Below, piece after piece: positions 1,715 to 52,744 of a stretch of DNA of 64,000 nucleotides. A model generated the notes under the pieces. The model saw only the letters and a list, made by a program, of their open reading frames with translations. It had not been told where the DNA came from and ran no database searches. Origin of the DNA: Planctomycetia bacterium (GTDB lineage Bacteria > Planctomycetota > Brocadiia > Brocadiales > Brocadiaceae); the NCBI GenBank assembly GCA_015075005.1, contig JABTVC010000004.1:1-64000 (forward strand), given 5' to 3'. Each line of letters starts with the position of its first letter. Within the stretch, counting starts at the first letter, position 1. The position numbers and the translations under genes are program-made.

Positions 1715-1722
1715 AATAAACC

Positions 1723-3010: not shown

Positions 3011-3050
3011 AAGTAAAGAAAGGGCAACTCATATATCCCGGACCTAAAAC

Positions 3051-3679: not shown

Positions 3680-4150
3680 ATGAAACTAAACCTTATTCGT
3701 AGAAAACGGAGAGCTCCGGACATCGAGTCGTTTATCTTCAGTTCCACAGAACCTCTCACCTGGAAAGCCGGACAGTTTCTCCACTATGTCTTCATCGCGG
3801 GCGGTATCGGCATCACGCCATTCCACTCCATACTTAAAGAAACGGATCGCGCAGAGATAAAACAACACGCAACGTTATTGTATGCTAACCATGACCACAA
3901 CATCCCATATAAAGAGGAGTTGGAAAAATTCGCAAAAAATAATTCGAACCTTATCATGCATTATGTCATCGCTCCCGAGCGCATAGACGAAAACACATTT
4001 AAAAAATTGGTGCCGGATATGCAAACACTAGTCTTTTATGTTTCTGGTCCCGAGCCGATGGTGGAGAGCTTAGGTGGCATCTTAAAAAAAATGGGTATTG
4101 CGGTGAATCATATAAAGCAAGATTATTTCCCAGCGTCCCACACTCAATAA
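3680..4150 (+). CDS. Ferredoxin/flavin reductase-like protein lacking its FAD-binding part
   Basis: 156-residue relative of ferredoxin-NADP+ reductase type oxidoreductases. It begins like the family (NLIRRKRRAPDIESFIF, then WKAGQFLHYV) and then jumps straight to the NAD(P)-binding entry FIAGGIGITPFHSIL. Normally some 60-70 residues holding the flavin-binding Arg-x-Tyr-Ser/Thr motif and the rest of the barrel lie between. The NAD(P) domain afterwards is complete (LYANHDHNIPYKEEL, VFYVSGPEPMVESL). The reading frame is kept, so a protein could be made, but it should not bind flavin. The exact boundary suggests a deletion, not divergence. Confidence 0.7.
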   Translation: MKLNLIRRKRRAPDIESFIFSSTEPLTWKAGQFLHYVFIAGGIGITPFHSILKETDRAEIKQHATLLYANHDHNIPYKEELEKFAKNNSNLIMHYVIAPERIDENTFKKLVPDMQTLVFYVSGPEPMVESLGGILKKMGIAVNHIKQDYFPASHTQ

Positions 4151-4167
4151 TTTGCTAAATATTGGGA

Positions 4168-4368
4168 ATGAAATATCTGAGCATTCCTGTATTGATTAAA
4201 GAAGGGATTAAACCGGATCACGTTGATCGATTTTGTGAAGAAATAGAGCTTCTCGTCACCAGTTTTAGTACACTGCCATACGGAGAAGCGCGCTTGGGCG
4301 TTTACTATGATGTTGGAATATATCTGGATAAAAAAAAGGTTGTCTTTGAAACTATTTTCTCTCGGTAA
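4168..4368 (+). CDS. Hypothetical small protein upstream of ClC remnant
   Basis: 66-residue ORF beginning MKYLSIPVLIKEGIKPDHVD from the ATG at 4168 (an in-frame TTG lies at 4162). It has no membrane segment and no motif I recognise; composition is ordinary for a soluble protein. It overlaps the presumed start of the ClC channel remnant in another frame. It could be a real small gene or the truncated head of a longer one. No function is proposed. Confidence 0.35.
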   Translation: MKYLSIPVLIKEGIKPDHVDRFCEEIELLVTSFSTLPYGEARLGVYYDVGIYLDKKKVVFETIFSR

Positions 4369-6200
4369 GATCGTACTCTGGCTCAATCGCCAGCAATTCT
4401 CCGAATCAGTTGTTCTTGCTGTATTAGCGATACTCATTGGTCTCACGAGCGGTATAGGAGTATGGCTCTTCAAGCAACTGTATAACGTGATATTTCAATA
4501 CGCATTCGAGGGGATAGATACGCCTCTGGGTTTTTTGCATCACAAGAAAATTATCCTTCAAGTGATTAATGATCTGGTACATTGGGCCGAATTCGACAGG
4601 ATGGGTTCGATCTTGGGTCTTATAGGAAATTGGATGATATACCTTGTGCCTGTCATCGGTGGTCTCGTTGTCGGATTGATTTCTCACTTCTTCATCGGTA
4701 AAGAACGATATCAGGGCATAGCAGGTATAATGGAGTCCGTAGCGTTAGGGAATGGACGGCTGCCTTATAGAAAAATACCGGTCAAAACAGTTGCTTCTGC
4801 ATTATCCATCGGTTCCGGCGCTTCAGTTGGTCCTGCAGACCCCTCGTTGCAAATTGGCGCATATTTAGGATCGATGTTTGGGCAACTCTTGCGCCTTTCT
4901 GATGAGCAAATTCGTGCACTCGTTGCATCGGGTGTTGCGGGTGGAATTGCCGCTGCCTTCAATGCGCCTATTACCGGCATATTTTTCGCGTTGGAGATTA
5001 TTATAGGAGACCTGCGCGTAAACGCCTTTGGCATCGTTGCATTGGCAGCCGTGGCCGCGTCTGTGTTTACTCAGGCCGTATTGGTACATCCTGCGTTCCT
5101 GGCATCCCTGCCATATACATTTAACTCAGTATGGGAACTGCCGCTCTATTTTGGGTTAGGTGTGCTCTCCGGAGGGCTGCATTGCGTTCTATATTCGCCT
5201 GCATCATTTCACGCGGGATATCTTTGATACATGGGTAGATGCCCCGCTGGTTTAAACCAGTTGCTGCCGGTCTCGCCGTCAGCCTCGTTGGAATTTATCT
5301 ACCGCAGGTGCTTGGCACAGGTTATGCTACAATTGGAAATATCTTAGACGGCAAACCGCTTTCCAGTGACTCTCCTGCTTTCACTGGCATTATCCGAGGC
5401 TGGTGCTAACGCCGATTTGCATCAGTGGCGGTTTCCACGGCGGTGTGTTTGCGCCTGCCCTTTTTCCGGTGCTTCACTTGGGGGTGCTTATGGACTCGTT
5501 GCTAAACAGGTTTTCCTCTTCTCTCAACATTTCACCACCTGCCTTTGCGATGGTCAGGATGGCAGCCGTCCTTACGAGCACCCGCCATGCACCGATTACC
5601 TCGTTCATGCTGCTATTTGAAATGACTCATGACTATCGGATCATTCTGCCGCTGATAGCTGCGGTAAACGTCAACCTGTTCCTCTCATGGCATTTACAAC
5701 ACGATTCAGTGTATACCTTGGACTGGCGCGCAAGGGTATACGTCTGCAACAGGGACGTGATGTTGGCGTGCTGGAAACAATTACGGTTGACAAGGTCATG
5801 GAAACGGAGATCGACACTTTGCGAGAATCTGGTTCGTTGACAGTGGCAATCGATTTATATATGCAGAAACGGTATCACGGCTTACCAGTGCTCAATGACG
5901 ATGGTAGATTGACTGGTATTATCACCGTGCAAGATATTGATCGCATACAGGGTGACAGTAGTGATACCGGGATGCACACCGTTGGTGAAGTTTGTACACG
6001 CGAGTTGCTTTTGGCGTATCCCGATGGGACGATTCGGGCGGCGTTGCGGCGTATCAGGGTTGAGAAACGTGAGTCAATTGCCAGTCGTTGCCCGTGACAA
6101 TTCGCGTCGTTTAGTAGGTTTGCTGCGCAATACCGATATTGCACGCGCCTACGATCTGGCGGTGACCCGCCGTGCGGCAATTCAGCATCGTGCTTATTAA
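4340..6200 (+). pseudogene. ClC chloride channel with C-terminal CBS pair, multiply frameshifted
   Basis: About 600 codons' worth of a ClC-family anion channel/antiporter. The first 290 residues are intact and hold several membrane helices, GSGASVGPADPSLQIGA (the selectivity region, where GSGxSxGPEGP is usual) and AFNAPITGIFFALEI. The frame breaks near 5190. The rest is scattered over other frames: VLTPICISGGFHGGVFAPAL at about 5410, GASLGGAYGLVAKQVF at about 5490, HAPITSFMLLFEMTHDYRI at about 5590, then the CBS pair around 5770-6180 (YHGLPVLNDDGRLTGIITVQ; SQLPVVARDNSRRLVGLL). At least five indels are needed to join them. The substitution of Glu by Asp/Pro in the GPADP motif would also alter a key gating residue. 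Confidence 0.8.
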
Positions 6201-6306
6201 GTTGCAACTAAGGGCGCTTGACGATGCAAAATTTTTAACTCGAATCAATAATATACAATCGTCGTTTGATTACTTTACGCAGGAAACATAAGGAGGATGT
6301 AAAACA

Positions 6307-6472
6307 ATGGAAGATACAAATGTATAATTTGTGGATATATCTACGACCCGAAATTTGGTGACCTGACCATGGAATTAATCCCGCACGCAGCTTTCAGGAT
6401 TTACACCTGATGATTGGGTCTGTCCTCAGTTAATGACATGCGCTCCAAGGAACAGTTTGAACAAATTTGATA
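6307..6472 (+). pseudogene. Rubredoxin, frameshifted
   Basis: Remnant of a 50-55 residue rubredoxin, a one-iron electron carrier. A strong ribosome site (AAGGAGG at 6290-6296) precedes the ATG at 6307. In successive frames one reads CxICGYIYDPKFGDP, GINP.TAF, DDWVCPQ and CAPKEQFEQI, which together are the rubredoxin signature with its two Cys pairs. At least three indels interrupt it, including one just before the first Cys pair. The ribosome site and spacing survive, so decay looks recent or the indels are sequencing errors. Confidence 0.65.
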
Positions 6473-6574
6473 AATTTGATTGAATGAATAAAGGGACTTC
6501 CTTTGTTTTCTCAAAGCACGGTTTAGCGTATTTTGCAGTTACTATGATTAACGGATTCATAAGGAAACAGACGG

Positions 6575-6936
6575 ATGGATCAGAATAAGAAACATGCTCA
6601 TATCACAACACTTGGATCTCAACCTGCACGATTAATTGATTTGGTAAATTACCGGGATTGCTCAGTGGTGAGCCGAGATCATGAATAAAGACAGGAACTA
6701 TAGCGGTGTTTGCCTTTGATGAAGGGCAAGGGCTGAGTGAACATACAGCGCCATTCGATGCCTTAGTTTATCTTCTTGAGGGTGAAGTGGAAATTGATTA
6801 TATCAGGAAGTCCCTTCGCCTGAAAGAGGGAGAAGTTGTTATCATGCCAGTAAATAAACCACATGCGCTGAAAGCAATAAATAAATTCAAGGATGATGTT
6901 GACGATGATAAGGTCTTAATTCTTGCTTCCTGGTGA
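6575..6936 (+). pseudogene. Cupin-domain protein, frameshifted
   Basis: Single-domain cupin of about 115 residues. The start (MDQNKKHAHITTLGSQPARL) is in one frame and runs into a stop near 6682. After one indel the main body follows: TGTIAVFAFDEGQGLSEHTA, with the His of cupin motif 1, then LVYLLEGEVEI, EGEVVIMPVNKPHALKAI. A second indel near 6890 changes the end: removing one G restores KFKMMLTMIRS and a stop at 6917-6919, the ending I would expect. Two one-base changes thus explain all disruption. Cupins of this kind often accompany rubredoxin and ferritin-like stress proteins. Confidence 0.65.
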
Positions 6937-7023
6937 TATTGTGTAACAGGTATGGAAGATTAAGAGGCTGATAATAGGCCGAATCTGCCAGAATCGTTTT
7001 GATTTATCTGAAAGTATCAATCG

Positions 7024-7765
7024 ATGGAAGCCAAAAAGATATCGTTGTCATAGAGGCGGACTGCGGAGGATACGTCTGCATTGCGATTAGCAAGGTTGTT
7101 CCGTAAACACCCTGAATATCAAGATACATCTTATAGATGGAAATCCTTATCACGCGCTCAAGACACAATTACACGAGGGCAGCCGTCCGAAAGAAGAGGT
7201 ATCTGGCTTCTATCGATCGCATTATAAAAAGAAAAACATTATCTTTCACCTTGGAGAAGTAACGGGATTGATACGAGGAACATATCGTTCATAGAATTCG
7301 GGTCTTTAGCTTTTCATTACTTAGTGATTGCACTTGGAAGTCAGGTAATTTTATAATATCCCTGCAGAGAAAGTGGGATGAATACAGGACAATTAGGACG
7401 TATTATCGTCGATGAGTTTCTTAGAGCGGAGAATCATCCTTTTATTTGCGCCATTGGTGACAATGCCCTTGCAATAAATCCTCCACAAAGAACCTGTTCC
7501 CGCTGCATTTGCGGTTTGCATTGCAAGGACGATTGGTAGCATACAATGGGTCTACGGATATTTTAGGGTATGAAAACCGTATCATCCAAAAGTTCTAAGG
7601 TGAATCGGGCCAGCCCAGGAAGGCACTTTGCCGTTGGATGGTTGGCGCTCCTTCCTGAAGAAAATTACCTTTGTTGGTTTTTTTGGGAAGTCTTCTTGAA
7701 ACAGCCGTTCAGGAAAAACACATATTCCTCCTGAGAAAGAAAGTGGAAAGTGGATAACGTCATAA
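7024..7765 (+). pseudogene. Type II NADH dehydrogenase-like flavoprotein, middle missing
   Basis: Fragments of a membrane-associated NADH:quinone oxidoreductase (NDH-2-like). Read across frames: KKDIVVIGGGCGGY (FAD-binding glycine loop, with an indel), RKHPEY, LIDGNPYHALKTQLHE, KKKNIIFHLGEVTG, FHYLVIALGSQ, then VDEFLRAENHPFICAIGDNALAINP (second flavin motif) and KKITFVGFLGSLLKTAVQEKHI at the end. The central NADH-binding domain, expected between LGSQ and VDEFL, is absent. A matching central piece occurs at 15986-16275. Frameshifts and stops are spread throughout. Confidence 0.65.
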
Positions 7766-7888
7766 TAATTTTCTACGATGCAAAATTACGTGAAAGGTCA
7801 TCGAAAGTCAGGCGATGATCACGAACAATTGATATCCTGACACAAAACGTGTGTGACGGAAGTCTCCTGTTGCAGAAAAGGAGTTAGT

Positions 7889-8276
7889 ATGATGTTCAAG
7901 AGGGTCCTGACCATGTGGGAAATTGTACCGGGGAATGCGGAAAGACCATTGACTTCTATGTAGACGTTCTTGGCTTTAGAATTAGGAGTCGTAGAAATGA
8001 AAAATACCGCCCATGAAAGAGATTGTTTATATTGAACTTGGCGATACGGTACTTGAGAATCATCTCCGTGGACAGGCCCAAAGCGAAATCCAACAACCCG
8101 GACAGGTAGGATGCAGAGGCATTGCCCTTGAGGTGGACAATATGGCCACGGCAGTGAATTATCCTGATGTGACAGGGATAGCTATGGCCCAGGGCTACAT
8201 AGACACGGGCAATTCGTTCCGTGGAGATAAAGAGACCACGGATGGGCTTATTATAGAACTCCGGCAGTGGAAGTAG
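7889..8276 (+). pseudogene. VOC (glyoxalase/bleomycin-resistance) family protein, frameshifted
   Basis: Remnant of a roughly 130-residue vicinal-oxygen-chelate protein. A ribosome site AAGGAG at 7878-7883 precedes the ATG at 7889. Joined over frames it reads MMFKRVDHVGIVPGNAERTI, DFYVDVLGFRI, KEIVYIELGDTVLE, then QQPGQVGCRGIALEVDNMA and the end GLIIELRQWK. The His after the first strand and the Glu of VYIELGD/IIELRQW are candidate metal ligands of the family. Several indels lie before 8010 and around 8070 and 8170. Its 3' third is repeated at 10874-10975. Confidence 0.7.
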
Positions 8277-8404
8277 CAAAACTACGCCGCCGCAGAACGA
8301 CAAAGCCGGTTTCAGCGGACAGGATGCCGTTGTTTGGCAGGGAGCGTTGGGCGTAAGGGAAATCATGGTTGCGATACGATAACAGAAGTAGAAAGAGGTA
8401 ACGG

Positions 8405-8772
8405 ATGATCCCAGACAAAATGATGCAGGTTCTCAAATGCGAAGTGTCGTTGCGGTAGTGACCGCCAGGTGGCGACGTATCCGCATGTGGTTAACACTGG
8501 AACAACTATACACATCACCCAAGATGAACATCCTTTCAATCGGTTGGCGGCATGGTGCTACGCTTGGGAGGCAAATCTGAAGACAAACAACAACATTCTT
8601 TAACCCTTGGGAAGCCGGGGAGGTAGAGGGCCATGGCATTTTGTACGGGTTCCTGGTCAAGGCACGGCAACCTTCGTGAGAAAACCGGTGAGCGGTTTGA
8701 CATCGTAAAAGCGCTTTCCTTAGGCAGGCGGCAATGGAGATAACGATCCTCTCCGTTACGCAGACATTGTAA
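8405..8772 (+). pseudogene. Pyridoxamine 5'-phosphate oxidase-fold protein, frameshifted
   Basis: Remnant of a small flavin-binding protein of the PPOX-like split-barrel family. Pieces in different frames: MIPDKMMQVLKCE at the ATG 8405, VVTAGGD and HVVNTWNSYIHITQDE in the middle, GTGFLVKGTA and TGERFDIVK, then AVMEITILSVTQTL with a stop at 8770-8772. The final block is the usual C-terminal strand of this family. An AGAAAGAGG ribosome-site-like sequence precedes the start. The last 100 bp are repeated, diverged, at 11035-11150. Confidence 0.6.
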
Positions 8773-8792
8773 ACATAAGGGCAACAAATTAA

Positions 8793-10019
8793 ATGCAGCT
8801 CGAAAGCGTAGCTAAATTCCGCAACCGTAGGGCACTCCGCTCAGAGAATGGTGTTCCCAATTCTGATTGCCATCGGTTTTTCCCATTTGTTGAACGATAC
8901 GATTCAATCGTTGATTCCGGCCATTTACCCATCGTCAAGGAATCGTTTCGATTTGACTTTCGCGCAAGTCGGATTGATTACACTCACTTTTCAAATGACC
9001 GCTTCGTTGTTACAGCCCGTGGTCGGGTTTTACACAGATCGGAATCCGAAACCCTTCTCACTGGCGATAGGAATGTCATTCACGTTGTTTGGATTGATCT
9101 GCCTTGCGTTCGCCTCTAGTTTTCCACAGTTGCTCTTTTCAGTCGGACTGGTTGGTTTGGGTTCGTCGATCTTCCATCCAGATCTTCGCGCATCGCTTAC
9201 ATGGCATCAGGTGGCCGACACGGATTTGCCCAATCACTTTTTCAAGTCGGAGGAAATGCAAGGAAGTTCGATCGGCCCGTTATGCGCCGCATTGATTGTG
9301 TGCGGGACGGACGGCGTGCAAACATACTTTGGTTTTCACTCGCGGCAATCGTTGGAGTCAGCGGTCCTGTACAAAGTCGGACAATGGTATCAAACTCATC
9401 ATCACAGGATCGTCGGCGCAACAAAGCACTCGCTTCAAAATGCTTCCGTTGAGTTCAACGAAAGTCGTGACGTCTCTGTTTATCTTAATCGCTCTGATTT
9501 TTCAAAATATTTTATTTGACCAGCCTCACGAGGAGCTATTACACGTTTTATCTGATCCACATTTCATGTCTCAGTGGCCAGCGCGCAGGTTCATCTGTTC
9601 TTGTTTCTGTTTGCAGTCGCGGCGGGGACATTGATCGGCGGGCCCGTTGGGTGATCGGTTCGGGCGCAAATACGTGATCTGGTTTCCATTCTTGGCGTGC
9701 TCCGTTCACGATTGCCCTGCCTTACGCGAATCTGATGTGGACTTCAGTTCTCACCGTGCCAATCAGCGTCATTTTAGCGTCGGCGTTTTCTGCTATCTGG
9801 TTTATGCAATTTGCTGCCGGGAAAGTCGGAATGATTGCGGGACTGTTTTTCGGTCTGGCATTCGGCATGGCGGGCATCGGCTCAGCAGTTTGGGGAGTTG
9901 GCCGATTTAACCAGTATTTCTTACGTCTTTCACGTTTGTTCCTATTTACCGTTGATCGGTCTGTTGACCGGCCTTTGCCTAATATTGAGCTGAACGGTAA
10001 TATTTCACAGGAAGAATAA
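8793..10019 (+). pseudogene. fsr: MFS efflux transporter of the fosmidomycin-resistance type, about ten indels
   Basis: A full-length 12-helix major-facilitator pump (about 400 residues) broken into short pieces. In order: VFPILIAIGFSHLLNDTIQS, LIPAIYPILKESF across a shift, AQVGLITLTFQMTASLLQPV, GFYTDRNPKPFSLAIGMSFT, FSVGLVGLGSSIFHPD, MASGGRHGFAQSLFQVGGN, IGPLCAALIV, VTSLFILIALIFSKYFYLTS, AAGTLIGGPVGDRFGRKYVI, then the last helices near 9850-10010 ending LTGLLPNIE. The HLLNDTIQSLIPAIYP block is characteristic of the Fsr group. Order and spacing are conserved along the whole length; only the frame is lost. Confidence 0.75.
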
Positions 10020-10165
10020 TGATGACTATTTTAGCAAAGATTGATGCACGCAAGGGCGTTTGAGTTGTTGGCGGATCGGAAACACTGCTCGTTTGCGCTT
10101 ACGAAGGTGACGAAGAATTCCGGCAGCCACGGAGAGTGCGATCTCGCTGCACGATTTTGTTTCGA
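10019..10165 (+). pseudogene. Rhodanese-like N-terminal fragment
   Basis: Starts at ATG 10019 with MMTILAKIDARKGV, then across a shift LLVCAYEGDEEFRQ and ISLHDFVSK. This resembles the first half of a rhodanese-like domain (substrate-entry strand plus the HLEGAISL-type turn). The catalytic cysteine loop is missing because the sequence changes directly into an N-acetyltransferase-like piece at about 10165. Assigned with modest confidence from the short match. Confidence 0.4.
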
Positions 10166-10612
10166 AAAGGAGGCGGGCTGTACGGTTGCGATGTCTATGC
10201 CCCAACCGAAATCGATCTCGACGCTTATTTCGCCCGCATCCGTTACGCCGGACCGCGAAAGCCGACGCTCGCCTTGCGCTTCACGCCATCGTTGCCCATC
10301 ACGTCACCCGCGATCCGTTCGAGAACCTCGACGTGCTGCTGAGCCGGCCCATCCTGCTGGAACCTGCCTCGCTCAAAAAATTGATTCGCGACCGCCGCGG
10401 TGGATACTGCTTCGAACAAAACGGGCTTTTTCTGCTGGTGTTGGCGGCACTCGGCTTTCAGGTCCGCCGCTCTCCGCCCGCGCGCGCGGATACAGTGGCC
10501 TCGCGGTTTTACGCCTCCGCGCACGCACTTGTTCGCCCGCGTCAGGGATCGCCGGTGAGACGTGGCTTCGCGGACGACTGGGCGGACTGGGCGGACTGTC
10601 GCCGACCGCGGC
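10165..10612 (+). pseudogene. Arylamine N-acetyltransferase fragment, GC-rich
   Basis: N-terminal half of an arylamine N-acetyltransferase (acetyl-CoA dependent). Pieces: EIDLDAYFARIRYAGPRKPT, AHHVTRDPFENLDVLL, the catalytic-cysteine block IRDRRGGYCFEQNGLFLLVL (Cys is the nucleophile), and after shifts FARVR-like and WLADVGFGG-like remains around 10560. The His-Asp part of the triad is not recognisable. GC content here is visibly much higher than in flanking DNA, a sign of foreign origin. The fragment is joined to rhodanese sequence on the left and AhpD-like sequence on the right. Confidence 0.7.
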
Positions 10613-10835
10613 ACTCCGATTTCAGCGAACGCGAACGTGCCACATTGGCATGGACGGAAGCGGTCACGCGCATCGCCGACACTCACGTTCCCGATGACGT
10701 GTACAAGGTGCTCAACTGAAACAGTTCACCGAAAGGAACGGGTTAATACTCTCTCACCTTTGCCGTTTGTGGCGATCAACGGTTGGAATCGGTTGAACAT
10801 CGGCTTTCAAACGGGTTCCCGGTTCTTGACACCCC
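10612..10835 (+). pseudogene. Carboxymuconolactone decarboxylase (AhpD-like) fragment
   Basis: C-terminal half of an AhpD-like alkylhydroperoxidase-fold protein. Seen: DFSERERATLAWTEAVTRIA and DTHVPDDVYKVL, then after an indel FTERELVNL-like and VAINGWNRLNIGFQT. The latter is the usual ending of the family. The region holding the redox CxxC would lie upstream and is gone. It follows directly on the acetyltransferase fragment, so the two were joined by a rearrangement. Confidence 0.6.
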
Positions 10836-10873
10836 AAGACAGAAGAAGGCAGTACGATGTTCAGAGAAAGGAT

Positions 10874-10975
10874 GGCTATAGCCCAGGCGCCAACAGACAC
10901 GGGCAATTCGTTCCATGGAGAGACAAGAGACCCGGATGGGCTTATTATTAGAATTCCGGCAGTGGAAATAGCAGA
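10874..10975 (+). repeat. Second, diverged copy of the VOC gene 3' end
   Basis: About 100 bp closely matching 8181-8279, starting at the GCTATRGCCCAGG core and covering the stretches GACACGGGCAATTCGTTCC, GGATGGGCTTATTAT and CCGGCAGTGGAA. It encodes the same TGNSF-GE-RDPDGLII end of a VOC protein, with different indels from the first copy. The VOC 5' two thirds are absent here. A PPOX 3' fragment follows, as in the first copy, so the pair was duplicated as a block and then trimmed. Confidence 0.75.
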
Positions 10976-11034
10976 GATGGTGCTAACATGGGCGAACGAC
11001 CAATCAAAGCGGGCAGAATACCGTCCTTGAGCCG

Positions 11035-11150
11035 GAGCGTTAAACACAAGGAAACCGGTGAGCGATTTGACATCGTAAAGAAACGGTTTTCTTTGGACAA
11101 GGGCGACTATGGAGATAACAATCCTCTCTGTCATTATCAGCCATTGTAAT
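11035..11150 (+). repeat. Second, diverged copy of the PPOX gene 3' end
   Basis: Matches 8665-8772: the segments AAACCGGTGAGCGRTTTGAC and ATGGAGATAAC.ATCCTCTC are shared. It encodes TGERFDIVKK and ATMEITILSV. The upstream part of the PPOX gene is absent. It lies 60 bp after the VOC 3' copy, whereas about 380 bp separate the equivalents in the first copy. Confidence 0.7.
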
Positions 11151-11327
11151 GATAAACAGAGGTTTGACGTGGAGATAAAAAGGCACTATCTTTATTACTG
11201 AAATGATGCAAAATTCTCTTGAAGGCCTACCGATAAATTATGTCCCAATGAGTTGCGGGCTTTAAAGCAATACCCGTTAAGCCGTTAGCAAGACCTCACC
11301 TTTGTCAGGCCCTCGCGAGGAAAATTG
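11151..11327. other. Intergenic sequence between decayed genes
   Basis: No coding signal recognised. It contains a GATGCAAAATTCTCTTG element at 11205-11221 related to elements at 7777-7803 and 16617-16643. Confidence 0.4.
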
Positions 11328-14300
11328 TCAGTACACATGCCGACATAAGATCTTATTCCACTTTTGCCCGGTTTTCTGGATTCCGGATCTTCTGATCACG
11401 ATGTCAAATTACAGGGGTTAAAACGAGGCCGAAGAACGTGACCCCGAACATGCCGCTGGAATACGGGGGTTACCCAGCGCCTGACGCATCTCGGCGCCGC
11501 GCTTTTGGTGGCCAATCAAGAGGGGGATACGCCCAGTATGAAAGCGACGAGGTCATCAATATCGGCGGGCGGGCTGACGCGCGAGGCCCAGATCACGGCC
11601 TCACTCGCATCCCTTACCCGTATCCTGATAGTCCTTGGCGAATTCCACTATTAAATCGCATTCTTACGCAGGTCCCACAGGCACGACGGAACCCTATCTG
11701 CGTGGGGATGTTTGTTGTCCATGTCCCACAGCCCTATATGCCCAATATCGCCGAAAGGAGGCACATGGGCACGATCAGTATGATCGTCAGAGGGGAATGA
11801 CCAGCTCTCATGGCGGGCGAGACAATACGAGAATACTAACAACACACATACCGGAAATATATACAGCGACGTGTTTCCTTGGTGACCTCTTGATATGCAA
11901 GCTCCGTCCATTCGTAGCTCACGCCGCAGGGAGTATCCGGTCTGCTAACCTCTCCATCGCTTCAATCGCTCGGCCCGAGCTGAATCCGGCAGCGTTGCAC
12001 CACTCACCTCGATCGCGGGGAAGAGGTTGCCAGCGCACGACACGGTCAGGTCCCGTTTCGTTCATTATATCGACAAACGAACCAGGGGATGGAATCTCCG
12101 TTTTAGGCTCCGTGTCCTCAGCTTCGCGATGCCTTCGGCCTGCTGACGGAAGCCTCCTTCTGCCTGCGCCGTGACTCTGTAAACCCGCCCAAAGGGTTAA
12201 TGTCGTTCGTACATCGAGACCCAGATAAACCTGAAGTGTGTCGAAGATATTCGTCAGCGGACGTCTAACTTCTTTGCCTTTGTCCTGTCGACCTCGACGT
12301 ATATCTGCGAAGGGTCTTCGTGCTAAACGTGGTGTACACCCCAGTCAGGCCTGCCTCCTGATTCGCTGCCTCGATCAAGGCGTAGGCCGCCTTCGAGCTC
12401 CTTTATGCCCACCGGCGCGGTCTTCGACCATCATCTTGAGACCCGCCTGACGCCCAATCCTCTGACCGGCGGGGAGAAATAACCAGGGCCTGGCTTCCTG
12501 TATAACGGAGCCTCTTGCTCAGGTCGGCTATTATCTGATCAGGCGCAGGGTATTTCTGGCCCGTTCGTCGAATGGTGTGAGCAGGGGTGAATATGACGCC
12601 CGCGTCCGGGCTATTCGAATGTCGCCCCGAGAACCCGCAAGCCCAACAGCATAGACAATGCCCGGCGTACCAAGGATGATATTCGTCGCGCGGGCGATGA
12701 CTGCGTCAGTCCTCTCTCAGGCGCCGTCCGGAAGCGCAACGTCCACGATGAGATACCCCTCGGTCTTGAGCGGGTATGAACCCGTGGATGCACCTGGAGT
12801 GAATCCGATATACGTCAGTCCGATGAGTCCGCAATGAACGAATTACGGCAATGGTGCTGAAGCGTAAAATCCTGCTGATAGTGCCCTCGTAAGGGTTTGT
12901 CGCGCGGTTGAAGGAGGAACGGTTGAAAGCACCGAACACCTTCCTGAGAGCCAGATTGAGGTAAGGCCCGCGAACCATCCGGCGCTGCATCCTGCGGCGA
13001 GAAGCCCTGCGGATTGCCCAAAGGGCAACCAGTGCTATAAAGGTGATCGTGAACGTCCCGGCAATATTAACGCCTGGGATAGATGCGAGTGCCCGTCAGT
13101 AACGGGTAGGCGGTAAAACCGACAATTACGGCTATGCCCACACGTGGCAGCTCACGCCTTTCGGCCTCGCTATAGCGAGCGATTAGCTGTGCCCGCCCTC
13201 GCGGGTGCGAGTAAGCGCGTTTATGGCAGACGGGATAGTAGATACCGCGATAGTAAGCGCGAACTGCTTATAGAACTGGCCGCTTATCCCACGGGAGAAA
13301 CGCGTGGGTATAAACACCGAACTGAAGTACGAGGGGATCCTTTCACACGGGCAGTAATTTCTGCCATTGCTTTTAAAATGGCCTCCGGGAATCGAGTCCC
13401 TTCGACATCCACCGGGCTTTATGTTCTCAACAACGACGATAGGTCGTCCACCGATGCTATCGCGAGCACGAGGCCGAACAGCGTATAGGGTTGTTGAGCG
13501 AAAATCCGAAAGCTGACATGACGGCGAACGTGCCGATCGAGCGACACTACTGCATCTATCATGGGCAGCAGCGCAGACTTCCAGTCCTGAAGGAATATTA
13601 CGACGACTATAAAAACGAGAATAAATGCAACGAAGAGAGTGTGGTACACCTCGTTTATAGATTGCTGCACGAATTTCGTCGGGTTGTAGACAATCTGTGA
13701 TTCGGACCCTTGGGAAGTCCTTGCTGATCCGGGCCATGGTTTTCTCTACGGCCTCTGCCGTGGCCAGCGCGTTAGACAGGGAACTGGAATATGCCGATCC
13801 CCTGCGCAGACTTACCGTCGACGTAACTGTTGACGCCGTAATCCCTCGCTCTCGAGCTCTATTGCGCCGTCGATCCTTTAACCGCGTGGATACGCCCGTC
13901 TTCACCAGTCCTGATGATTACGTCACCGAACTGCTTTTCCTCGACCAGCCTTCCGGGTATGTTAACGGGAGCTGAAAGGCGTTACATCGGGCATGGGAGG
14001 CTGCCCAATGACGCCGACCGCGACCTCGACGTTCTGCTCGCGGACTGACTGCACTGCGTCACTTGCGGTCATGCCCATCGATAAGAGCTTTTCGGGATTG
14101 GTACATACCCTCGTGCCATGTTCCGCGCCCCGAACAAGGTCCACGTTGCCGGACACCCTCTATGCGGTGGGGACGTCGTAAACCCTGATCGACGCGTGGT
14201 TGCTTATGTAGAGCTGATCGTAGGTATTATCGGGCGAGAGGAGGTGAAATACCAACAGCAACATGTCTGAGAGCTTTTTCTCACCGTGATGCTATCCGCC

Positions 14301-14689
14301 TAACCTCCTCAGAGCGGCACGGCTCACGCCACGGCGATCCTGTTCTCAACCAGCTTTTGAGGCCTTACTTATCTATATCGGTGCGATCGCGAACGTTATC
14401 GTGAGCTGCATCATCGCCGTCCGCTCGTCGACTGTGAGGACACATAGGAAGCATGTCCTCGACACCGTTTATTTCCTGCTCGAGCGGCGTTGCGGACGGT
14501 GTCCAGCTATAACCTCAGTGTTTGCGCAAGGGAAGCTCGTGCGAACGACATGGTCGGCAGGATTGACAGCCAGGGGTACTGGCTTACGGGCAGCGTAAAA
14601 TACGCTATCAAACCTGCGATTACTATCAGGATCGAATCACTGTGGCGAATATCGGCCTGTCTACGAAAAACCTGGACACTATCTATCAC
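11328..14689 (-). pseudogene. RND multidrug efflux permease (AcrB/MexB type), many frameshifts
   Basis: A whole inner-membrane RND permease (about 1050 codons) on the minus strand, broken by a dozen or more indels. In order from 14689: SILIVIAGLIAYFTLPVSQY (first helix), VGNVDLVRGAEHG, SLGMTASD-like, VGVIGQPPMPDVTPF, GIFQFPGSNALAT-like, VQQSINEVYHTLFVAFILVF, IFLQDWKSALLPMIDAVVSL, LFGLVLAIA (helix 4 region with the proton-relay Asp-Asp lost to an indel), IVVVENI, GQFYKQFALTIAVST, PYLNLALRKVFGAFNRSS, TGFIPAQDRGY, then YESWSLP and the last helices near 11420-11700. GC content is higher than in adjoining genes. It follows its adaptor gene. Confidence 0.85.
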
Positions 14690-14737
14690 TCCTCAATTGC
14701 TATCGGCTCTCTTGTAAATCGCCCCTTTCCACCAGAG

Positions 14738-15950
14738 TCATTGCGTACCCGCATGAGGAAATTCTTTTCCCTGACGACTGGCCTTCACGTTCTTCGACAG
14801 GATCGACTTTGATCCCCGGGCTGGACTTCCTCTGCAGGCTCCTTTGACTATTACCCGGTCTTCAGCCACCGCTTCTCTTACGATCCTGGCCCCATTCATC
14901 CCAAGCCGAGCGGTGACCTGACGGTACTCAACTGTATTTGACAAATTGACTAATAAACACGAACTTCAGCGACTGGTCGCTTCCGACAGCTTCGTCGGGT
15001 ACGAGCATGGCCTTATACTGCCCGCTGCCCGCGATCTTCATCCGGGCGAATAGTCCCGGTGTGAGGGTGTTGTCCGGGTTGGGGAATACGCCCCTTCCTC
15101 TGATAGTCCCAGTATTCGGGTCCATCCTGTTATCGACGAAGTCGATGTAGCCCTTGTGCGGATAACCCGTTTCGTTCGAGAGTTCCATAAAAGCCGGGTT
15201 TTCTCCTTTCCCGGATCCAGGCATAATCCCCTCCCGCTCCAGACGGCTGTATCTGAGATAGGACTGCTCGTCTTCCTCTAAGTAGCAATAAATCGGGTCC
15301 GTTGAAACTATGGTAGTGAGGAGTGTACCACCGGTACCACCGTTAATGAGGTTCCCTTCGGTGACGTATTTTCTGCTGATCAAACCGTAGATGGGCGCCC
15401 TCACCTGCGTGAATTCTACGTTTAGTCTGGCGGCGTCAACGTCAGCCTGCGCCATCTCGACTGATGCACGAGCTACCTGCTCGTCGGAAACCCTGGTGTC
15501 GGCCTCTTCTTCCGAAATTACCAGCTCGCTCAGGAGGTGCTTCGCGCGACGGAGGTCTTTCTCCGCAAGAGAAAGGCGGGCTTTTGAGATTTTTAACTGG
15601 GCCAAAGCCCGGTCCAGCTCTGCCCGATAGGGTCTCGGGTCTATTACGAAGAGCAGGTCACCATTTTTCACCATCTGGCCGTCCTTAAAATGTATGGATT
15701 CCAGATAACCGCTTACGCGCGCCCTCACGTCTACCGTATCCACGGCTTCGAGCCGTCCCGTATACTCGTCCCACTCCACGACCTCCTCGACCACGGGCTT
15801 ACTCACTGTAACCTCAGGCGGCGGGGGTGCCTGGGTCTGCTGCCCTTCGCATCCGATTAGCAGAAATGCATGGGCTGCGAGAATGAGCAGGAGTAAAACA
15901 GTGGGTTCAATAGTGAATGGACGGAAGAGGGGAAATTGCTTTTTAGACAT
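14738..15950 (-). pseudogene. RND periplasmic adaptor (membrane fusion protein), C-terminal frameshifts
   Basis: AcrA-type adaptor linking the RND permease to an outer-membrane channel. The first 330 residues are intact. A lipoprotein signal (LILAAHAFLLIGC) has its lipidated Cys at about residue 34; then come EVTVSKPVVEEVVEWDEY, the lipoyl half GYLESIHFKDGQMVKNGD, a coiled coil at about 115-180, the second lipoyl half VRAPIYGLISRKYVTEGN and the beta-barrel. At 14940 the frame shifts. NTVEYRQVTARLG, AEDRVIVKGACR and RQGKEFPHAGTQ follow in another frame with further indels, and the stop is at 14738. The order adaptor then permease is that of an efflux operon, now non-functional unless the indels are errors. 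Confidence 0.85.
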
Positions 15951-47039: not shown

Positions 47040-48650
47040 CTACTTCGTAAGGATAGCTTTCTCTAAACGTCCTTCCCTGCGCAATCTGGCTGCCTCTGAC
47101 TGGATTTTGGTAAATTCCATCATCATAGGCGCTTGACCCCACCACCAGGAGACGTCTGGCTGTGCATGCGCAGTTCCTTTATAACCTTGCAGTTTGTACC
47201 AGAACCACAATCTGTTATACATATTCTCGATATTCGATGGATTGTCCTGCTGCTGCAGGAACATACCATAAACACCAAGAATTGGCCCTACCACAGGGAA
47301 CTTGCCCTTCAAAGTCTTAAAGGCATTATAAATCGGTTCACCGAGGAATGCCGGGCTAAGCTGCTTTTCGATCCCATCGCTCAAAGGATAAGGGTCCCTA
47401 TCGGCAGCACTGGGATAAAGATATCCATCTGCAATCAAATCCTCAACGATCTTCTGTGCCTTATCTGCAAGGGTATGTGCCTGAAACATAAATTCATCCA
47501 ATGACTTCAAATACGTATCGGCAAATCGATCGCTATGGCACTTAGCGCATACTTCCAGCCAATAAGACCTTTTGGCAACATTTTCTTCTGAGTAGATATC
47601 AATTTTATCAGAAATAATCTTAATTCCGTACGGATAATCCTTCAGAGAAGAAGTATATTCAAGGTTCTTTGGTGGGACGGTACCCATACGCCAGATACCT
47701 TTCATCACGGGGTTATGGATAAAACGGCCGTGCTTTTCATACATGTGGCAGTACTGGCATGTGGGAGTACGGTAGTCCTTCCCTGGCCTTACTTCTGATA
47801 ATGGCCTGTTAAAATCAAAATGCTCTTCTTCCTGATGATAGATTACACCATGTTTAGATTCGCCATAAGATTCCGAATCGGGATGGTCAGGTCCCATGTG
47901 ACAGGTTATGCAGGCTTCTGGCTGCCTTCCCTCTGCAGCGCTAAACTTATGACGGGTATGGCACACATCACATTTTTCAGCGCCAGAATGACAATGGTCA
48001 CATCCATGTTGTCCATAGAGATAACCCCTTCGTGCGGCCTCAGCATACCAGGGAACAATAGTATTCGCCTCCCACGATTGAATATGGTTTGGACGGCCGA
48101 CCTCACGTTCCCTTAAGAAATCATCAAATTGCGGTCTATGACATTCACCACACACCTCTCCGGTTGGCATCCTGATCTGGTTTTTCTTGGTATCAGCATG
48201 ACAGTCAAAACAGTGGACTTCATTCAATACCCTGTTTGTACGTTTTTCGATTTCAGCAGTTCTGGCGGATAGATATGGGGTGCTCTTTGGATTTTTATGC
48301 CCTGAACTTCTCCAATCCCTTACAACACCAGGTGTTGCTTCTTCATGACATGTTACACACAAGTCCCTTCTTTCTTTTTCAATAAAGAGGGAATGATCCA
48401 GGTTTTTCATGGGTTCATAGTGCCTGTTCGGCTGCCAGTACATATCCAGCATCTGCGGCTTAAAATAATCCTTAAACGGCCCTGAACCCTCACGAAGTCC
48501 AACATTATCTTTATACACTGCCCGATACCAATCGGGCGTCCCCTCATACAAGTCGGGTGGTGTCTCCTTCTTGAGTGGTTGCTCAGCGGCCCACGCCACA
48601 GAAGTAAACAGCATCGCAGACAAACACAAACCTATTCCAACTTTTTTCAT
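47040..48650 (-). CDS. Octaheme hydroxylamine oxidoreductase-like protein
   Basis: 536 residues from ATG 48650, preceded by GGAGGTGA; an ATG five codons earlier overlaps that site. A signal peptide runs to about residue 22 (TSVAWAAE). Eight CxxCH haem sites: 98, 147, 167, 217, 227, 247, 298 and 368. The fourth (CDHCH, 217-221) is at the position of the catalytic P460 haem of HAO. The C-terminal helix region QGYKGTAHAQPD-VSWWWG resembles the part of HAO that carries the cross-linking tyrosine, but here it reads Trp-Trp-Trp-Gly, so the P460 crosslink may be absent, favouring a reductive role (nitrite or NO). Downstream of a diheme cytochrome c and likely complexed with it. Confidence 0.93.
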   Translation of the reverse strand: MKKVGIGLCLSAMLFTSVAWAAEQPLKKETPPDLYEGTPDWYRAVYKDNVGLREGSGPFKDYFKPQMLDMYWQPNRHYEPMKNLDHSLFIEKERRDLCVTCHEEATPGVVRDWRSSGHKNPKSTPYLSARTAEIEKRTNRVLNEVHCFDCHADTKKNQIRMPTGEVCGECHRPQFDDFLREREVGRPNHIQSWEANTIVPWYAEAARRGYLYGQHGCDHCHSGAEKCDVCHTRHKFSAAEGRQPEACITCHMGPDHPDSESYGESKHGVIYHQEEEHFDFNRPLSEVRPGKDYRTPTCQYCHMYEKHGRFIHNPVMKGIWRMGTVPPKNLEYTSSLKDYPYGIKIISDKIDIYSEENVAKRSYWLEVCAKCHSDRFADTYLKSLDEFMFQAHTLADKAQKIVEDLIADGYLYPSAADRDPYPLSDGIEKQLSPAFLGEPIYNAFKTLKGKFPVVGPILGVYGMFLQQQDNPSNIENMYNRLWFWYKLQGYKGTAHAQPDVSWWWGQAPMMMEFTKIQSEAARLRREGRLEKAILTK

Positions 48651-48689
48651 TTCTTTCACCTCCATTGGTATTTAAAGCATACTTAAATG

Positions 48690-49475
48690 CTATTTATTTT
48701 GGGTTTCTTCTGGTTTAATGAGCGACAATACGTAATGGGTTAAGTACCATCTTTGTTCATCACTAAGTTCCTTTGCAAAAGACGGCATGGGCGTACCATT
48801 CAGTCCTGTAGTAAACCGGAGGTATACATCCGTGGGTGAATTTCCACCCTTAAATTTTCCTGTGGTAAAATCAAAAGGTTTTATGGGGAACCCAAAATCA
48901 TCTTCCTGCTCAGACGCGCTGGGCCCGTCTCCGCGCCCTTCAACCCCATGGCATTTCCAGCATTCTAGCTTTTCTTCGTAAATCTTCTTTCCTTCTGCAA
49001 TGGTTCTTTCTGTTGGCCTGATTTCCAATCCGACATTAACCGATGCATCCGGTTTTCTGACTTCAAATGCCTCGGAAAAACTCTTCAGGACGGGAATCAC
49101 CGATAAGCGTTGTTCCTCTGTCAAAATGTCCCATGGGATCATGGTAGAATTTGGCACTCCATAGAAAATCGTCCTGTAAATGTCCTCATCCGTGGGAAGA
49201 GAGCCACTTGGAGTTGTTCTAAATTTATAGGCTCCTCGTGAAAAATCACGTGGTTTAGGCAGCAACGACCTTGCAAGAGGCCCATCTCCCTTACCTTCCT
49301 CGCCATGACAGGGGCTACAATATTTTTTATAGGTATCCTTACCCACCTCCGTAACCTCCGTTGGTACATTAATTGCGCTGGCAGTCATTGGCATTACACT
49401 CAACATCAAAGCTGCGCTTGCTACTGTTGTAGCACTCCATAAGCCAATCTTATCCAATAATACCTTAGGTTTCAT
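48690..49475 (-). CDS. Diheme cytochrome c
   Basis: 261 residues: a signal peptide of about 34 residues (MPMTASA), then two class I cytochrome domains. Haem sites are CSPCH (53-57) and CWKCH (172-176), with axial methionine candidates in NSTMIPW and NGTPMPSF. GEEGKGDGPLARSLLPKPRD and GVEGRGDGPSASEQ show the two domains are homologous. The octaheme gene begins 39 bp downstream on the same strand, and such octaheme/diheme pairs are known in anammox genomes. Likely electron partner of the octaheme protein. Confidence 0.93.
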   Translation of the reverse strand: MKPKVLLDKIGLWSATTVASAALMLSVMPMTASAINVPTEVTEVGKDTYKKYCSPCHGEEGKGDGPLARSLLPKPRDFSRGAYKFRTTPSGSLPTDEDIYRTIFYGVPNSTMIPWDILTEEQRLSVIPVLKSFSEAFEVRKPDASVNVGLEIRPTERTIAEGKKIYEEKLECWKCHGVEGRGDGPSASEQEDDFGFPIKPFDFTTGKFKGGNSPTDVYLRFTTGLNGTPMPSFAKELSDEQRWYLTHYVLSLIKPEETQNK

Positions 49476-49554
49476 ATCAGCCTATCCTCCTTTCCTCTTG
49501 CGATGTTATAAACTCAACCATTTTTTTTAACAAATACATTTTTTTGCTCCTTTT

Positions 49555-50322
49555 CTAATTCTGTGGATAAACACACTCTATTGATGTCGTTTCTTTTGGG
49601 TGGACAGTTACCTCCTTTTCTAAATTTCCTAGCTCTTCATGCCAAACCTGGAATCTATATGTCCCTGGCGGGATGTCACAAATTTCAAAATATCCATTTC
49701 TATCCGTCACATCAAAATATGGATTATCGAGAACGACAATCCATGCGCACGCATATTTGTGCAGGTCACACGACAACTTTATAATTTCCGGGTAATCAAA
49801 TTTTTTTGATATTCTCTGTTTGTAGGTCGTACCTAGATTAAAAGGCTGATTCTTAATTGAGCGGGTATGGATATTATGCATTCCCTCGTCGCCATGTAAG
49901 ATGTCTATAGTAGTGCCTGTTAAAATTGCAATTACGTGAGGAATGTAAATATTATTTTGCTGGTCTATAATGGGATGAATCGTTGGTATCCTCTTTTTTT
50001 TACCTTTTGTAATATCTTTAATAGAAACCGTGGCGTTTTTGAGGCCATTATTGATCTTACTAAAAATTAGTTTCTCGGAAGGGGTTTTAGAAGTATCAGA
50101 TAATTCCCAGTCGCGATAGAGATCGAGTCCCACGGCAGCTAAATCACCCACGTATTTAACGTTACCAATAACATTGCCGCCATCAATAACTTCTATCTCG
50201 GTATACTGCTGCTGTGCCGATATATTTTTTAAAGAAATTGCACACCAACCTAAAAATCCAAATAAGAAACTAAAAAAAATAATCTTTCTCATCACCTGAC
50301 ATTCAGACAAACAAATTTTCAC
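49555..50322 (-). CDS. Periplasmic cupredoxin-like protein with C-terminal beta domain
   Basis: 255 residues with a signal peptide. A plastocyanin-like segment (about 120-195) has HGDEGMHNIHTRS and IIKLSCDLHKYACAWIVV: the His and the Cys-x2-His arrangement fit a type 1 copper site, though the methionine is uncertain. The C-terminal 60 residues (TDRNGYFEICDIPPGTYRFQ, WHEELGNLEKEVTV) are a carboxypeptidase-regulatory-like fold. Proteins with this pairing are often called methylamine-utilisation-like. The GTG start at 50322 has AAGGA before it; an ATG at 50292 is possible. It is the first gene of the run leading to the cytochromes, so it may take part in electron transfer. Confidence 0.75.
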   Translation of the reverse strand: MKICLSECQVMRKIIFFSFLFGFLGWCAISLKNISAQQQYTEIEVIDGGNVIGNVKYVGDLAAVGLDLYRDWELSDTSKTPSEKLIFSKINNGLKNATVSIKDITKGKKKRIPTIHPIIDQQNNIYIPHVIAILTGTTIDILHGDEGMHNIHTRSIKNQPFNLGTTYKQRISKKFDYPEIIKLSCDLHKYACAWIVVLDNPYFDVTDRNGYFEICDIPPGTYRFQVWHEELGNLEKEVTVHPKETTSIECVYPQN

Positions 50323-50611: not shown

Positions 50612-52744
50612 TTATTTCGTAAGGGATCGTTGCATCGGGCTGTCCGTCACTGAGAATGTCCCCTTATCAATATTCTTTCCATCGGCAAAGACAAGGTAAC
50701 TATACTTTCCATAGTGAGGTATCTTGAATCCTACGCTTTTTATCGCGTCCGGGCTGAGACCCGCAAACAAGACAACTCCTTTTTTCATATTCTTTCCATT
50801 TTTAGCCGTCACGAGAAAGGCATTACCTTTCTTGTCAAATGTTACCTTATTTACCACAAAGAATCCCTCTTCAAATGAGAAATCCTTTGGTAAATTTCCG
50901 ACAAACATTTTCGTAAGTTTATTCTCCGTTGGTCCCCCCAGGATAAACAGACTTTTTTGAGATAACTCTGTTTCCGTCACTGACGTATCTGCCTTCACCA
51001 CATTCTTGCCACCCGCTAATAATTCAGCAAGATTCTTGTAGGTCTCCTGCAAGGCATCTCCTCCTCCCGCCGGATACACAATAACCTTATCATCATCCCC
51101 CATTACCAAATCTATCGTAGGTGGAATTTCTTCCCTATGGAGACGTCGAAATACATCACATTGAGGGTCTATAGCAATATACCTAGGCTGAGATTTTGTC
51201 TGGATGGATATAGAGTTAGATAGTTCATGTACCTCCGCAATAGTATAAATAGTTTCATCATCCAATTCAAGTTGAATAGGCAAGGAGAGACGGTATGGTT
51301 TACCCTGCTGAACAATTTCCACCCTTGTCAACCAACCATCTTTGACCTTTTCCATCCTTGTTGCTCCCAATTCAATAAAGGGCGCACCCTCGCGATTAAC
51401 CCATTGTTCAAAAAACCAGGATAAGTCCATCTTGCTGGTATCTTCAAAAATATACCTGATGTCTTTCCAGCCTGCTTCTTGCCAAATATAATCTTTGTAA
51501 AACCTTCTCAGTGATTGATAAAATAAATCATCTCCAACCATCCGCCTTACCATGTGGAATACCATTGCGGTCTTTCCATAGCCAATGGCCTGGGTTGCGT
51601 GATCTCTTCTGCCGATAAATTTTTTTAAGGGTAAATCGTTCTCTTCAGTTACGTAATTAGTGTATTTTCTGCAAATATCCCTGCGATAATCCCCGGCAGA
51701 GGCACTGTCCTTGAGCTCTTTATAATAATAGTCCGCCATATAGGCTGTCAGGCCCTCACACCAGTTCCCCTGAGACTCATCCACAAATACCGAGTTGCCC
51801 CACCAATTATGTAAAATCTCATGCCCCAGAGAAGTGTCTACAATAAATGGCATTTTTACGACGGTATTTCCGAGTAGGGTAAACGAAGGCATACCGTAAC
51901 CCGTTTGAAAGAAATTTTCCACAATGGCAAATTTTCTGTACGGATAGTCCCCCAGGAGTTTTTGGTACATGTCCAAATAGCGTGTGGTGGCATTCATGTA
52001 GGTTTCTGCCAAACCTTGATCTTCAGGGAAAAAGTAGGCATAAATATCAATATCATGATGTTTGGCACTGGTCACCGTATACCTTCCGGCTACAAGATGA
52101 CATTCCTCGGAGACATTTCTTTCTTCCCATGTGGTATACGTCTTACCGTTAACTGTTTTTTTACTGATAAGTGAACCCTGTGTAACGGCCTCATATCCTT
52201 CCGGCGTAATCACAGTTATCATAAAAGTTGCCAGGGAACCTGGAATATCAGGATACCATGAGCATGCCGGACTCAGGTAAACCCCTGCTTCATCAATAAT
52301 ACCAGTCGTTTCACCAACGTCCTCCAACTCTAACGAGGCAGGCTTTTCCAAGAGGCATCCTTCGTATGTAATATCCAAGACCACCCCATCAGATTGTCTC
52401 AATTCCGGTGGTATTTTAATCTCCAGACACTTTACATTCCCCCAAACACCTTTTTCCAAAACACTATCTCGGACCTTAAAATCTAATTTCCTATCCGAAG
52501 AATAAACAGAAAGGATTTGGAATGCCCCGTTAATAAAACACGAAAAGTTTTCCGCATGCTTACCGTGCACACGCATATGATCAACTGCCTTTAACTTGTG
52601 TTCCTTCAAATAGAGTTCGATCTCCAGATTGTGGCCCAGAATCTTATTTTCATGAACCTCCTTGGCAAATATGTCAGACACTATAGCAAATAATAAAACA
52701 GATGCAAAAGGCAACACATACCTGTATGATTTTGTAGTTATCAT
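50612..52744 (-). CDS. Secreted M1-family aminopeptidase
   Basis: 710 residues with a signal peptide (about 1-27). Zinc site His308-Glu309-x-x-His312 in SLGHEILHNWWGNSVFVD with Glu330 in GNWCEGLTAYMADYY. The exopeptidase motif corresponding to GAMEN reads GYGMPSFTLL, as in a divergent subgroup. The N-terminal saddle domain, a long catalytic domain and a C-terminal part with VMGDDDKVIVYPAGGG are present. Expected to act outside the cytoplasm on peptides. A strong ribosome site AAAAGGAG precedes the ATG. No operon partner. Confidence 0.87.
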   Translation of the reverse strand: MITTKSYRYVLPFASVLLFAIVSDIFAKEVHENKILGHNLEIELYLKEHKLKAVDHMRVHGKHAENFSCFINGAFQILSVYSSDRKLDFKVRDSVLEKGVWGNVKCLEIKIPPELRQSDGVVLDITYEGCLLEKPASLELEDVGETTGIIDEAGVYLSPACSWYPDIPGSLATFMITVITPEGYEAVTQGSLISKKTVNGKTYTTWEERNVSEECHLVAGRYTVTSAKHHDIDIYAYFFPEDQGLAETYMNATTRYLDMYQKLLGDYPYRKFAIVENFFQTGYGMPSFTLLGNTVVKMPFIVDTSLGHEILHNWWGNSVFVDESQGNWCEGLTAYMADYYYKELKDSASAGDYRRDICRKYTNYVTEENDLPLKKFIGRRDHATQAIGYGKTAMVFHMVRRMVGDDLFYQSLRRFYKDYIWQEAGWKDIRYIFEDTSKMDLSWFFEQWVNREGAPFIELGATRMEKVKDGWLTRVEIVQQGKPYRLSLPIQLELDDETIYTIAEVHELSNSISIQTKSQPRYIAIDPQCDVFRRLHREEIPPTIDLVMGDDDKVIVYPAGGGDALQETYKNLAELLAGGKNVVKADTSVTETELSQKSLFILGGPTENKLTKMFVGNLPKDFSFEEGFFVVNKVTFDKKGNAFLVTAKNGKNMKKGVVLFAGLSPDAIKSVGFKIPHYGKYSYLVFADGKNIDKGTFSVTDSPMQRSLTK

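What the first reader, a model, noticed from the sequence alone, without database searches (positions are those of the whole stretch)
47040..50322. Cupredoxin, diheme and octaheme genes in one run
The octaheme protein has all eight haem sites, but the segment that aligns with the P460-tyrosine region appears to read WWWG. If the tyrosine is absent, the enzyme should reduce nitrogen oxides and be one of the candidate nitrite reductases of anammox. A cupredoxin-like protein as third member is of interest as electron carrier.
Basis: partly seen in the sequence, partly recalled or inferred. Interest (0 to 1): 0.6.

Follow-up and report, generated by a model that had tools for sequence, protein, structure and literature searches.

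The report
Anammox HAOr nitrite-reductase operon with cupredoxin
These three genes encode a known anammox enzyme thought to turn nitrite into nitric oxide (HAOr), its two-haem partner and a small copper protein; the enzyme is already characterised in a relative, but the copper protein has lost one of its usual copper ligands throughout this bacterial family, which seems not to have been remarked on and is easy to test.

Summary
Observation confirmed. On the minus strand, 50322-47040, lie a cupredoxin-like gene, a dihaem cytochrome c and an octahaem HAO-type gene, in that order. The dihaem and octahaem proteins are 86% identical to PDB 6h5l, the Kuenenia Kustc0457/0458 complex (HAOr), published as a nitrite-reducing octahaem protein without the tyrosine cross-link. 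Tyr467 of Nitrosomonas HAO aligns with a Trp of WWWG, which is kept in all 34 distinct orthologues read. The genome has no recognisable NirS or NirK. HAOr's physiological role is disputed in two 2025 papers.

One point seems new. The gene order is conserved in 27 genomes. In the family's HAOr-linked cupredoxins the axial Met of the copper loop is gone (27 of 27 full-length sequences), while 47 of 47 paralogues and outgroups keep C-x2-H-x2-M. The Met-less proteins form one clade on a long stem; its Met-bearing sister is HAOr-linked as well. His, Cys and His ligands are invariant, so the copper site is predicted to be trigonal, perhaps open, like the solved purple cupredoxin of an ammonia-oxidising archaeon that oxidises NO. 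Copper binding and function are untested.

The parts
49555..50322 (-). Cupredoxin-like protein, orthologue of Kuenenia kustc0456: N-terminal hydrophobic (signal-like) segment, cupredoxin-like domain at about residues 110-200, then a carboxypeptidase-regulatory-like domain. Probable start ATG 50292 (residue 11) rather than GTG 50322.
49876..49878 (-). His149, predicted copper ligand 1 (in MHNIH)
   Evidence: invariant in orthologues and paralogues; aligned with the HN of PDB 5fc9
49759..49770 (-). Cys185 and His188, predicted copper ligands 2 and 3 (CDLH)
49750..49752 (-). Ala191, at the place of the axial Met of the C-x2-H-x2-M loop; Met absent in all HAOr-linked copies of the family, present in 47 of 47 paralogues and outgroups
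48690..49475 (-). Dihaem cytochrome c, orthologue of Kustc0457, partner subunit of HAOr
   Evidence: E=1.2e-135 to 6h5l_B; 86% identity; AAAGGAGG before ATG
47040..48665 (-). Octahaem HAO-like protein HAOr, orthologue of Kustc0458; probable start ATG 48650 (GGAGG just upstream)
   Evidence: E=0 to 6h5l_A; 86% identity
47139..47147 (-). WWW (residues 507-509) in place of the P460 cross-linking tyrosine
48651..48689 (-). 39-nt gap between dihaem stop and octahaem ATG; no terminator-like site on this strand
49476..49554 (-). 79-nt gap between cupredoxin stop and dihaem ATG; no terminator-like site on this strand
50612..52744 (-). M1-peptidase-like gene on the same strand, 289 nt upstream of the ORF; conserved upstream neighbour in most relatives read; relation to the trio unknown

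Best explanation
The run is the HAOr operon of a Brocadia-like anammox bacterium, orthologous to Kuenenia kustc0456-0457-0458. The octahaem protein binds nitrite at its catalytic haem; without the tyrosine bond that makes this haem an oxidising P460, it reduces nitrite by one electron to NO, which feeds hydrazine synthase. Electrons enter through the dihaem subunit. The cupredoxin is most likely a soluble redox partner made together with the complex; its copper site keeps His149, Cys185 and His188 but has lost the axial Met, so it should be trigonal and of raised potential. Shown here: orthology, eight haem sites, absence of the tyrosine, conserved active-site Asp and His, conserved gene order, loss of the axial Met. 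From papers on the Kuenenia orthologue: the complex, its structure and its NO-forming activity. Inferred: co-transcription, copper binding, partner role and direction of electron flow.
For: Matches to 6h5l A and B with E=0 and 1.2e-135, 86.4% and 85.7% identity. Trp at the Tyr467 column, Asp267 and His268 of NeHAO kept. WWW in 34 of 34 distinct HAOr sequences. Cupredoxin and octahaem in the same order on one contig with 880-984 nt between them in the 27 arrays of the family, plus one array in f5. Own genome: no NirK at E 1e-3 and only weak partial D1 hits (true NirS hits in relatives exceed 420 bits). kustc0458/0457 transcripts fall 28/39-fold when cells are fed NO instead of nitrite (PMC6423088). 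HAOr abundance follows NO formation, r=0.99 (PMC12485887). kustc0456 is described as a type-1 blue copper cupredoxin linked to 0457-0458, and 0456 and 0457 go down together under hydrazine (PMC12053348).
Against: Purified HAOr is slow (0.52 nmol/min/mg), and PMC11897245 found no activity in its fractions. One complete genome of the Kuenenia-like genus lacks the trio (G031), and Scalindua-like genomes have dihaem and octahaem without an adjacent cupredoxin, so neither is indispensable everywhere. No solved complex contains the cupredoxin; its structure model is of low confidence.
Confidence: 0.8

Rival explanations
1. HAOr has mainly another role (for example turnover of hydroxylamine or NO); nitrite reduction is a side activity and another enzyme such as HOX makes the NO.
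For: Low rate of purified HAOr, no activity in HAOr fractions of strain CSTR1, and faster nitrite reduction by HOX with methyl viologen (PMC11897245).
Against: Nitrite-linked regulation, r=0.99 correlation of abundance with activity, strict absence of the tyrosine.
Confidence: 0.25
2. The cupredoxin is an ordinary electron carrier whose axial ligand comes from elsewhere in the protein, so that the lost Met has no functional meaning.
For: Some cupredoxins use other axial ligands (established knowledge); two His and the Cys are invariant.
Against: The position varies freely (Ala, Ser, Thr or deleted) in the HAOr-linked clade and is Met in 47 of 47 others, and the change falls on one long stem branch. 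No other invariant Met, Gln or Cys was found in the clade (one search list).
Confidence: 0.3
3. The cupredoxin-like protein no longer carries redox copper and serves in assembly or binding through its carboxypeptidase-regulatory-like domain.
For: One ligand lost; long stem branch of 1.19 changes per column; Pfam recognises only the C-terminal domain in the window protein.
Against: His149, Cys185 and His188 are invariant in the Met-less clade.
Confidence: 0.2
4. The octahaem protein is a hydroxylamine- or hydrazine-oxidising HAO whose cross-linking tyrosine has merely moved.
For: Same fold family; Y490 and Y495 lie near.
Against: Trp at the position by two alignments; the 86% identical protein of solved structure is published as lacking the cross-link.
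Confidence: 0.02

Closest known systems
Kuenenia stuttgartiensis HAOr complex Kustc0458/Kustc0457 (PDB 6h5l) with kustc0456
   Same: Orthologous octahaem and dihaem subunits, 86% identity each; same WWWG segment; same three-gene arrangement.
   Different: Another species of the family; this genome has no recognisable NirS, which K. stuttgartiensis is reported to have.
Kuste4574-type HAO (Rieske/cytochrome b-linked); paralogue at G000:C1:702756-704228
   Same: 51% identity; Trp at the tyrosine column.
   Different: Reads WWYG; neighbour is a hexahaem protein; no adjacent cupredoxin.
Nitrosomonas HAO, Kuenenia HOX and HDH (tyrosine-bearing, P460)
   Same: Haem sites in the same order; Asp267 and His268 kept.
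   Different: They have the cross-linking tyrosine; this one has Trp.
Amicyanin-type cupredoxins, and the Met-bearing paralogue G000:C12:53775-54476
   Same: His, Cys, His ligands and the loop length.
   Different: They keep C-x2-H-x2-M; the HAOr-linked protein has Ala, Ser or Thr there, or one residue fewer.
Nmar1307 purple cupredoxin of Nitrosopumilus maritimus (taken to be PDB 5fc9)
   Same: Best cupredoxin match of the family profile (E=1.2e-6); 5fc9 too has no Met at the axial position (CSFHPWR); Nmar_1307 is reported to oxidise NO to nitrite and to have an open binding site (PMC6790972 and the title it cites).
   Different: Distant sequence, no HAOr operon, no C-terminal regulatory-like domain; the anammox site is untested. 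That 5fc9 is Nmar1307 rests on memory.

Membership tests
HAOr (Kustc0458/0457) complex | Orthology to Kustc0458 and Kustc0457 | tested here: met
   86.4% and 85.7% identity to 6h5l A and B; the nearest other paralogue of the genome is at 51%
HAOr (Kustc0458/0457) complex | Eight haem-binding sites | tested here: met
   eight CxxCH
HAOr (Kustc0458/0457) complex | No tyrosine for the haem cross-link | tested here: met
   Trp at the Tyr467 column
HAOr (Kustc0458/0457) complex | Adjacent dihaem partner gene | tested here: met
   48690-49475
HAOr (Kustc0458/0457) complex | Nitrite-to-NO activity and 60-haem assembly | not testable with these tools
   known only for the Kuenenia orthologue
Tyrosine cross-linked HAO/HDH (P460) | Cross-linking tyrosine | tested here: not met
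Type-1 copper cupredoxin | His, Cys, His ligands in the expected order | tested here: met
   H149, C185, H188 invariant and aligned with solved cupredoxins
Type-1 copper cupredoxin | Axial Met of the classical blue site | tested here: not met
   absent in all HAOr-linked copies of the family; not all type-1 sites have it
Type-1 copper cupredoxin | Cupredoxin fold | tested here: inconclusive
   family profile matches 5fc9 (E=1.2e-6) and the cupredoxin domain of Cu nitrite reductases; model of the window protein has pLDDT 42.8
Type-1 copper cupredoxin | Bound redox-active copper | not testable with these tools
   needs the purified protein

The most novel reading that the evidence does not exclude
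In the Brocadiaceae the HAOr-linked cupredoxin has become a three-ligand, open-site type-1 copper protein that meets NO or nitrite directly beside the NO-forming enzyme (binding, sensing or reversibly oxidising NO) instead of being a plain electron carrier.
Probability: 0.15. Interest if true: 0.65.

Novelty: already known. Interest (0 to 1): 0.35.

Why it matters
Which enzyme makes NO in anammox is still argued over, above all in Brocadia, where most genomes read here lack NirS and NirK; this locus is the standing candidate. Published activity assays used artificial donors, while the operon carries its own copper protein, whose site is predicted to differ from that of a blue copper carrier. 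That gives a direct test of what the third gene does and of HAOr's true rate.

Tried and rejected
Structure prediction of the cupredoxin from the six sequences that could be submitted gave pLDDT 42.8 and pTM 0.29; no fold search was run on it. Pfam and NCBIfam do not recognise the cupredoxin domain in the window protein itself; only the family profile did. The weak D1 hits in the own genome (23.9 bits, 112 of 368 positions, in 383- and 386-aa frames) were taken as other beta-propeller proteins (probably HzsB), not NirS, since NirS hits in relatives exceed 420 bits. That G031 lacks the trio because of masking was checked and not borne out: the place beside hemC holds no N and shows transposase-like frames. 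Promoter-like sites are no more frequent than in shuffled sequence (10 against 11.9), so no transcription start is claimed. Ferousi et al. 2021 is not held in the library; it, Dietl et al. 2019 and Kartal et al. 2013 are cited through other papers. One of the 30 Met-less rows counted is a frame that does not cover the copper loop (CLSHR); the number used is therefore the 27 full-length rows of the tree, whose loops were read.

Full report
What is there. Three genes lie head to tail on the minus strand: a cupredoxin-like protein (49555-50322), a dihaem cytochrome c (48690-49475) and an octahaem protein (47040-48665). The gaps are 79 nt and 39 nt (taking ATG 48650 as the octahaem start), with good ribosome sites before the dihaem and octahaem ATGs and no terminator-like site on this strand in either gap. 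A single transcript is likely but not shown. The genome is that of an anammox bacterium of the genus Brocadia or very near it: the complete Candidatus Brocadia pituitae genome (AP021856, 4,075,302 bases) has the length of G015:C1, which is classed in the same genus.

The octahaem and dihaem proteins. Both match PDB 6h5l over its whole length with 86.4% and 85.7% identity. This is the Kuenenia Kustc0458/Kustc0457 complex, described as a 60-haem reductase complex in which the haem chain of Kustc0458 is extended from haem 1 by the haems of Kustc0457 (Dietl et al. [quoted passage not shown] 2021, cited in PMC12485887 and PMC11897245).

The tyrosine. NeHAO Tyr467, located by counting along the 4fas chain, aligns with Trp508 by MAFFT and with Trp507 by phmmer. 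The tyrosine is found where it should be in paralogues L001, L003, L005 and L006 of the same genome. Y495 is shared with paralogues that have the normal tyrosine, and Y490 is present in 6h5l as well. NeHAO Asp267 and His268 are kept. In 34 distinct HAOr sequences from the family of the window (f1), a second family that includes NirS-bearing, Scalindua-like genomes (f4) and f5, the motif is WWW without exception; five kuste4574-type sequences read WWY, again with Trp at the tyrosine column.

Is it the nitrite reductase? The own genome has no NirK at E 1e-3 and no NirS-strength hit. Across 62 genomes of the order 16 have strong D1 hits and 11 have NirK-like hits, none of the latter above the NCBI cut-off. 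HAOr and the kuste4574-type paralogue are thus the named candidates left here, besides HOX. Published evidence is divided: HAOr abundance follows NO formation with r=0.99 in strain MBR1, while in strain CSTR1 its fractions showed no activity. In cells fed NO, kustc0458 and kustc0457 transcripts fall 28- and 39-fold.

The cupredoxin. [quoted passage not shown] 2013). That is the only paper of the library found to name the gene. Cupredoxin and octahaem lie on one contig and strand, with room for the dihaem between, in 28 arrays of 27 genomes: 27 arrays in the family of the window (880-984 nt apart) and one in f5. The eight f1 arrays read in full hold the dihaem there, and seven of them the M1 peptidase upstream. 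The seven f4 loci read have the dihaem-octahaem pair without an adjacent cupredoxin. The f5 genome has cupredoxin-dihaem-octahaem-cupredoxin. In the three f3 loci read the octahaem is of the WWY type with a hexahaem neighbour.

A change in the copper site. His149, Cys185 and His188 are invariant, and the family profile aligns them with the copper ligands of solved cupredoxins. In 47 of 47 paralogues and outgroups the loop is C-x2-H-x2-M (one has an extra residue before the His). In the HAOr-linked f1 sequences the Met is absent: Ala, Ser or Thr stands there, or one residue is deleted. A maximum-likelihood tree puts the 27 full-length Met-less rows in one clade (100/100) on a stem of 1.19 changes per column; the sister is the f5 cupredoxin directly upstream of its dihaem-HAOr pair, which keeps the Met (100/98). 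The simplest order of events is association with HAOr first, then one loss of Met.

What it may mean. A non-coordinating residue in the axial place raises the potential of type-1 copper: in a laccase the change Leu to Met lowered it by 140 mV (PMC4220974, abstract). The closest solved cupredoxin in the profile search, 5fc9, also lacks the Met (CSFHPWR). From memory it is Nmar1307 of Nitrosopumilus; Nmar_1307 is reported to oxidise NO to nitrite and to have an open binding site (PMC6790972). A raised potential would make the protein a weaker reductant for nitrite than a low-potential blue copper carrier, so it might accept electrons or meet NO directly. These are inferences; no copper has been shown in this protein.

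Verdict. The finding is real and its reading correct, but the system is a known one. The loss of the axial Met in the third gene's product is the part worth following.

Noticed in passing
G031:C1 (4,406,153 bases, same genus g6 as the Kuenenia-like G029 and G030); L147: A single-contig genome lacks the HAOr trio and its M1 peptidase neighbour and shows no NirS- or NirK-strength hit. The place beside hemC holds no N and carries transposase-like frames. It keeps a WWY octahaem. Either a real loss or a peculiarity of that assembly.
   Followed up: partly
L081 (G061, family f5), 1-15634: HAOr with a cupredoxin on either side, a third cupredoxin, and two large proteins (702 and 765 aa) with dihaem-like parts nearby; the cupredoxins keep the axial Met.
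   Followed up: partly
L006 (G000:C1:208578-212264), residue 170 of the protein: A tyrosine-bearing octahaem paralogue has seven CxxCH and one CGTSECH (C-x4-CH) motif, probably its eighth haem site.
   Followed up: no
L090 (G000:C12:46000-62000), cupredoxin at 7767-8516: The Met-bearing cupredoxin paralogue lies near several c-type cytochromes, one fused to an ethylbenzene-dehydrogenase-like haem domain, which may be the nitrite oxidoreductase cluster.
   Followed up: partly
G025:C99 and G025:C133: One relative carries two cupredoxin-HAOr arrays on separate contigs.
   Followed up: no
window 50612-52744: The M1-peptidase-like gene upstream of the trio is conserved there in most relatives read; its relation to HAOr is unknown.
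   Followed up: partly
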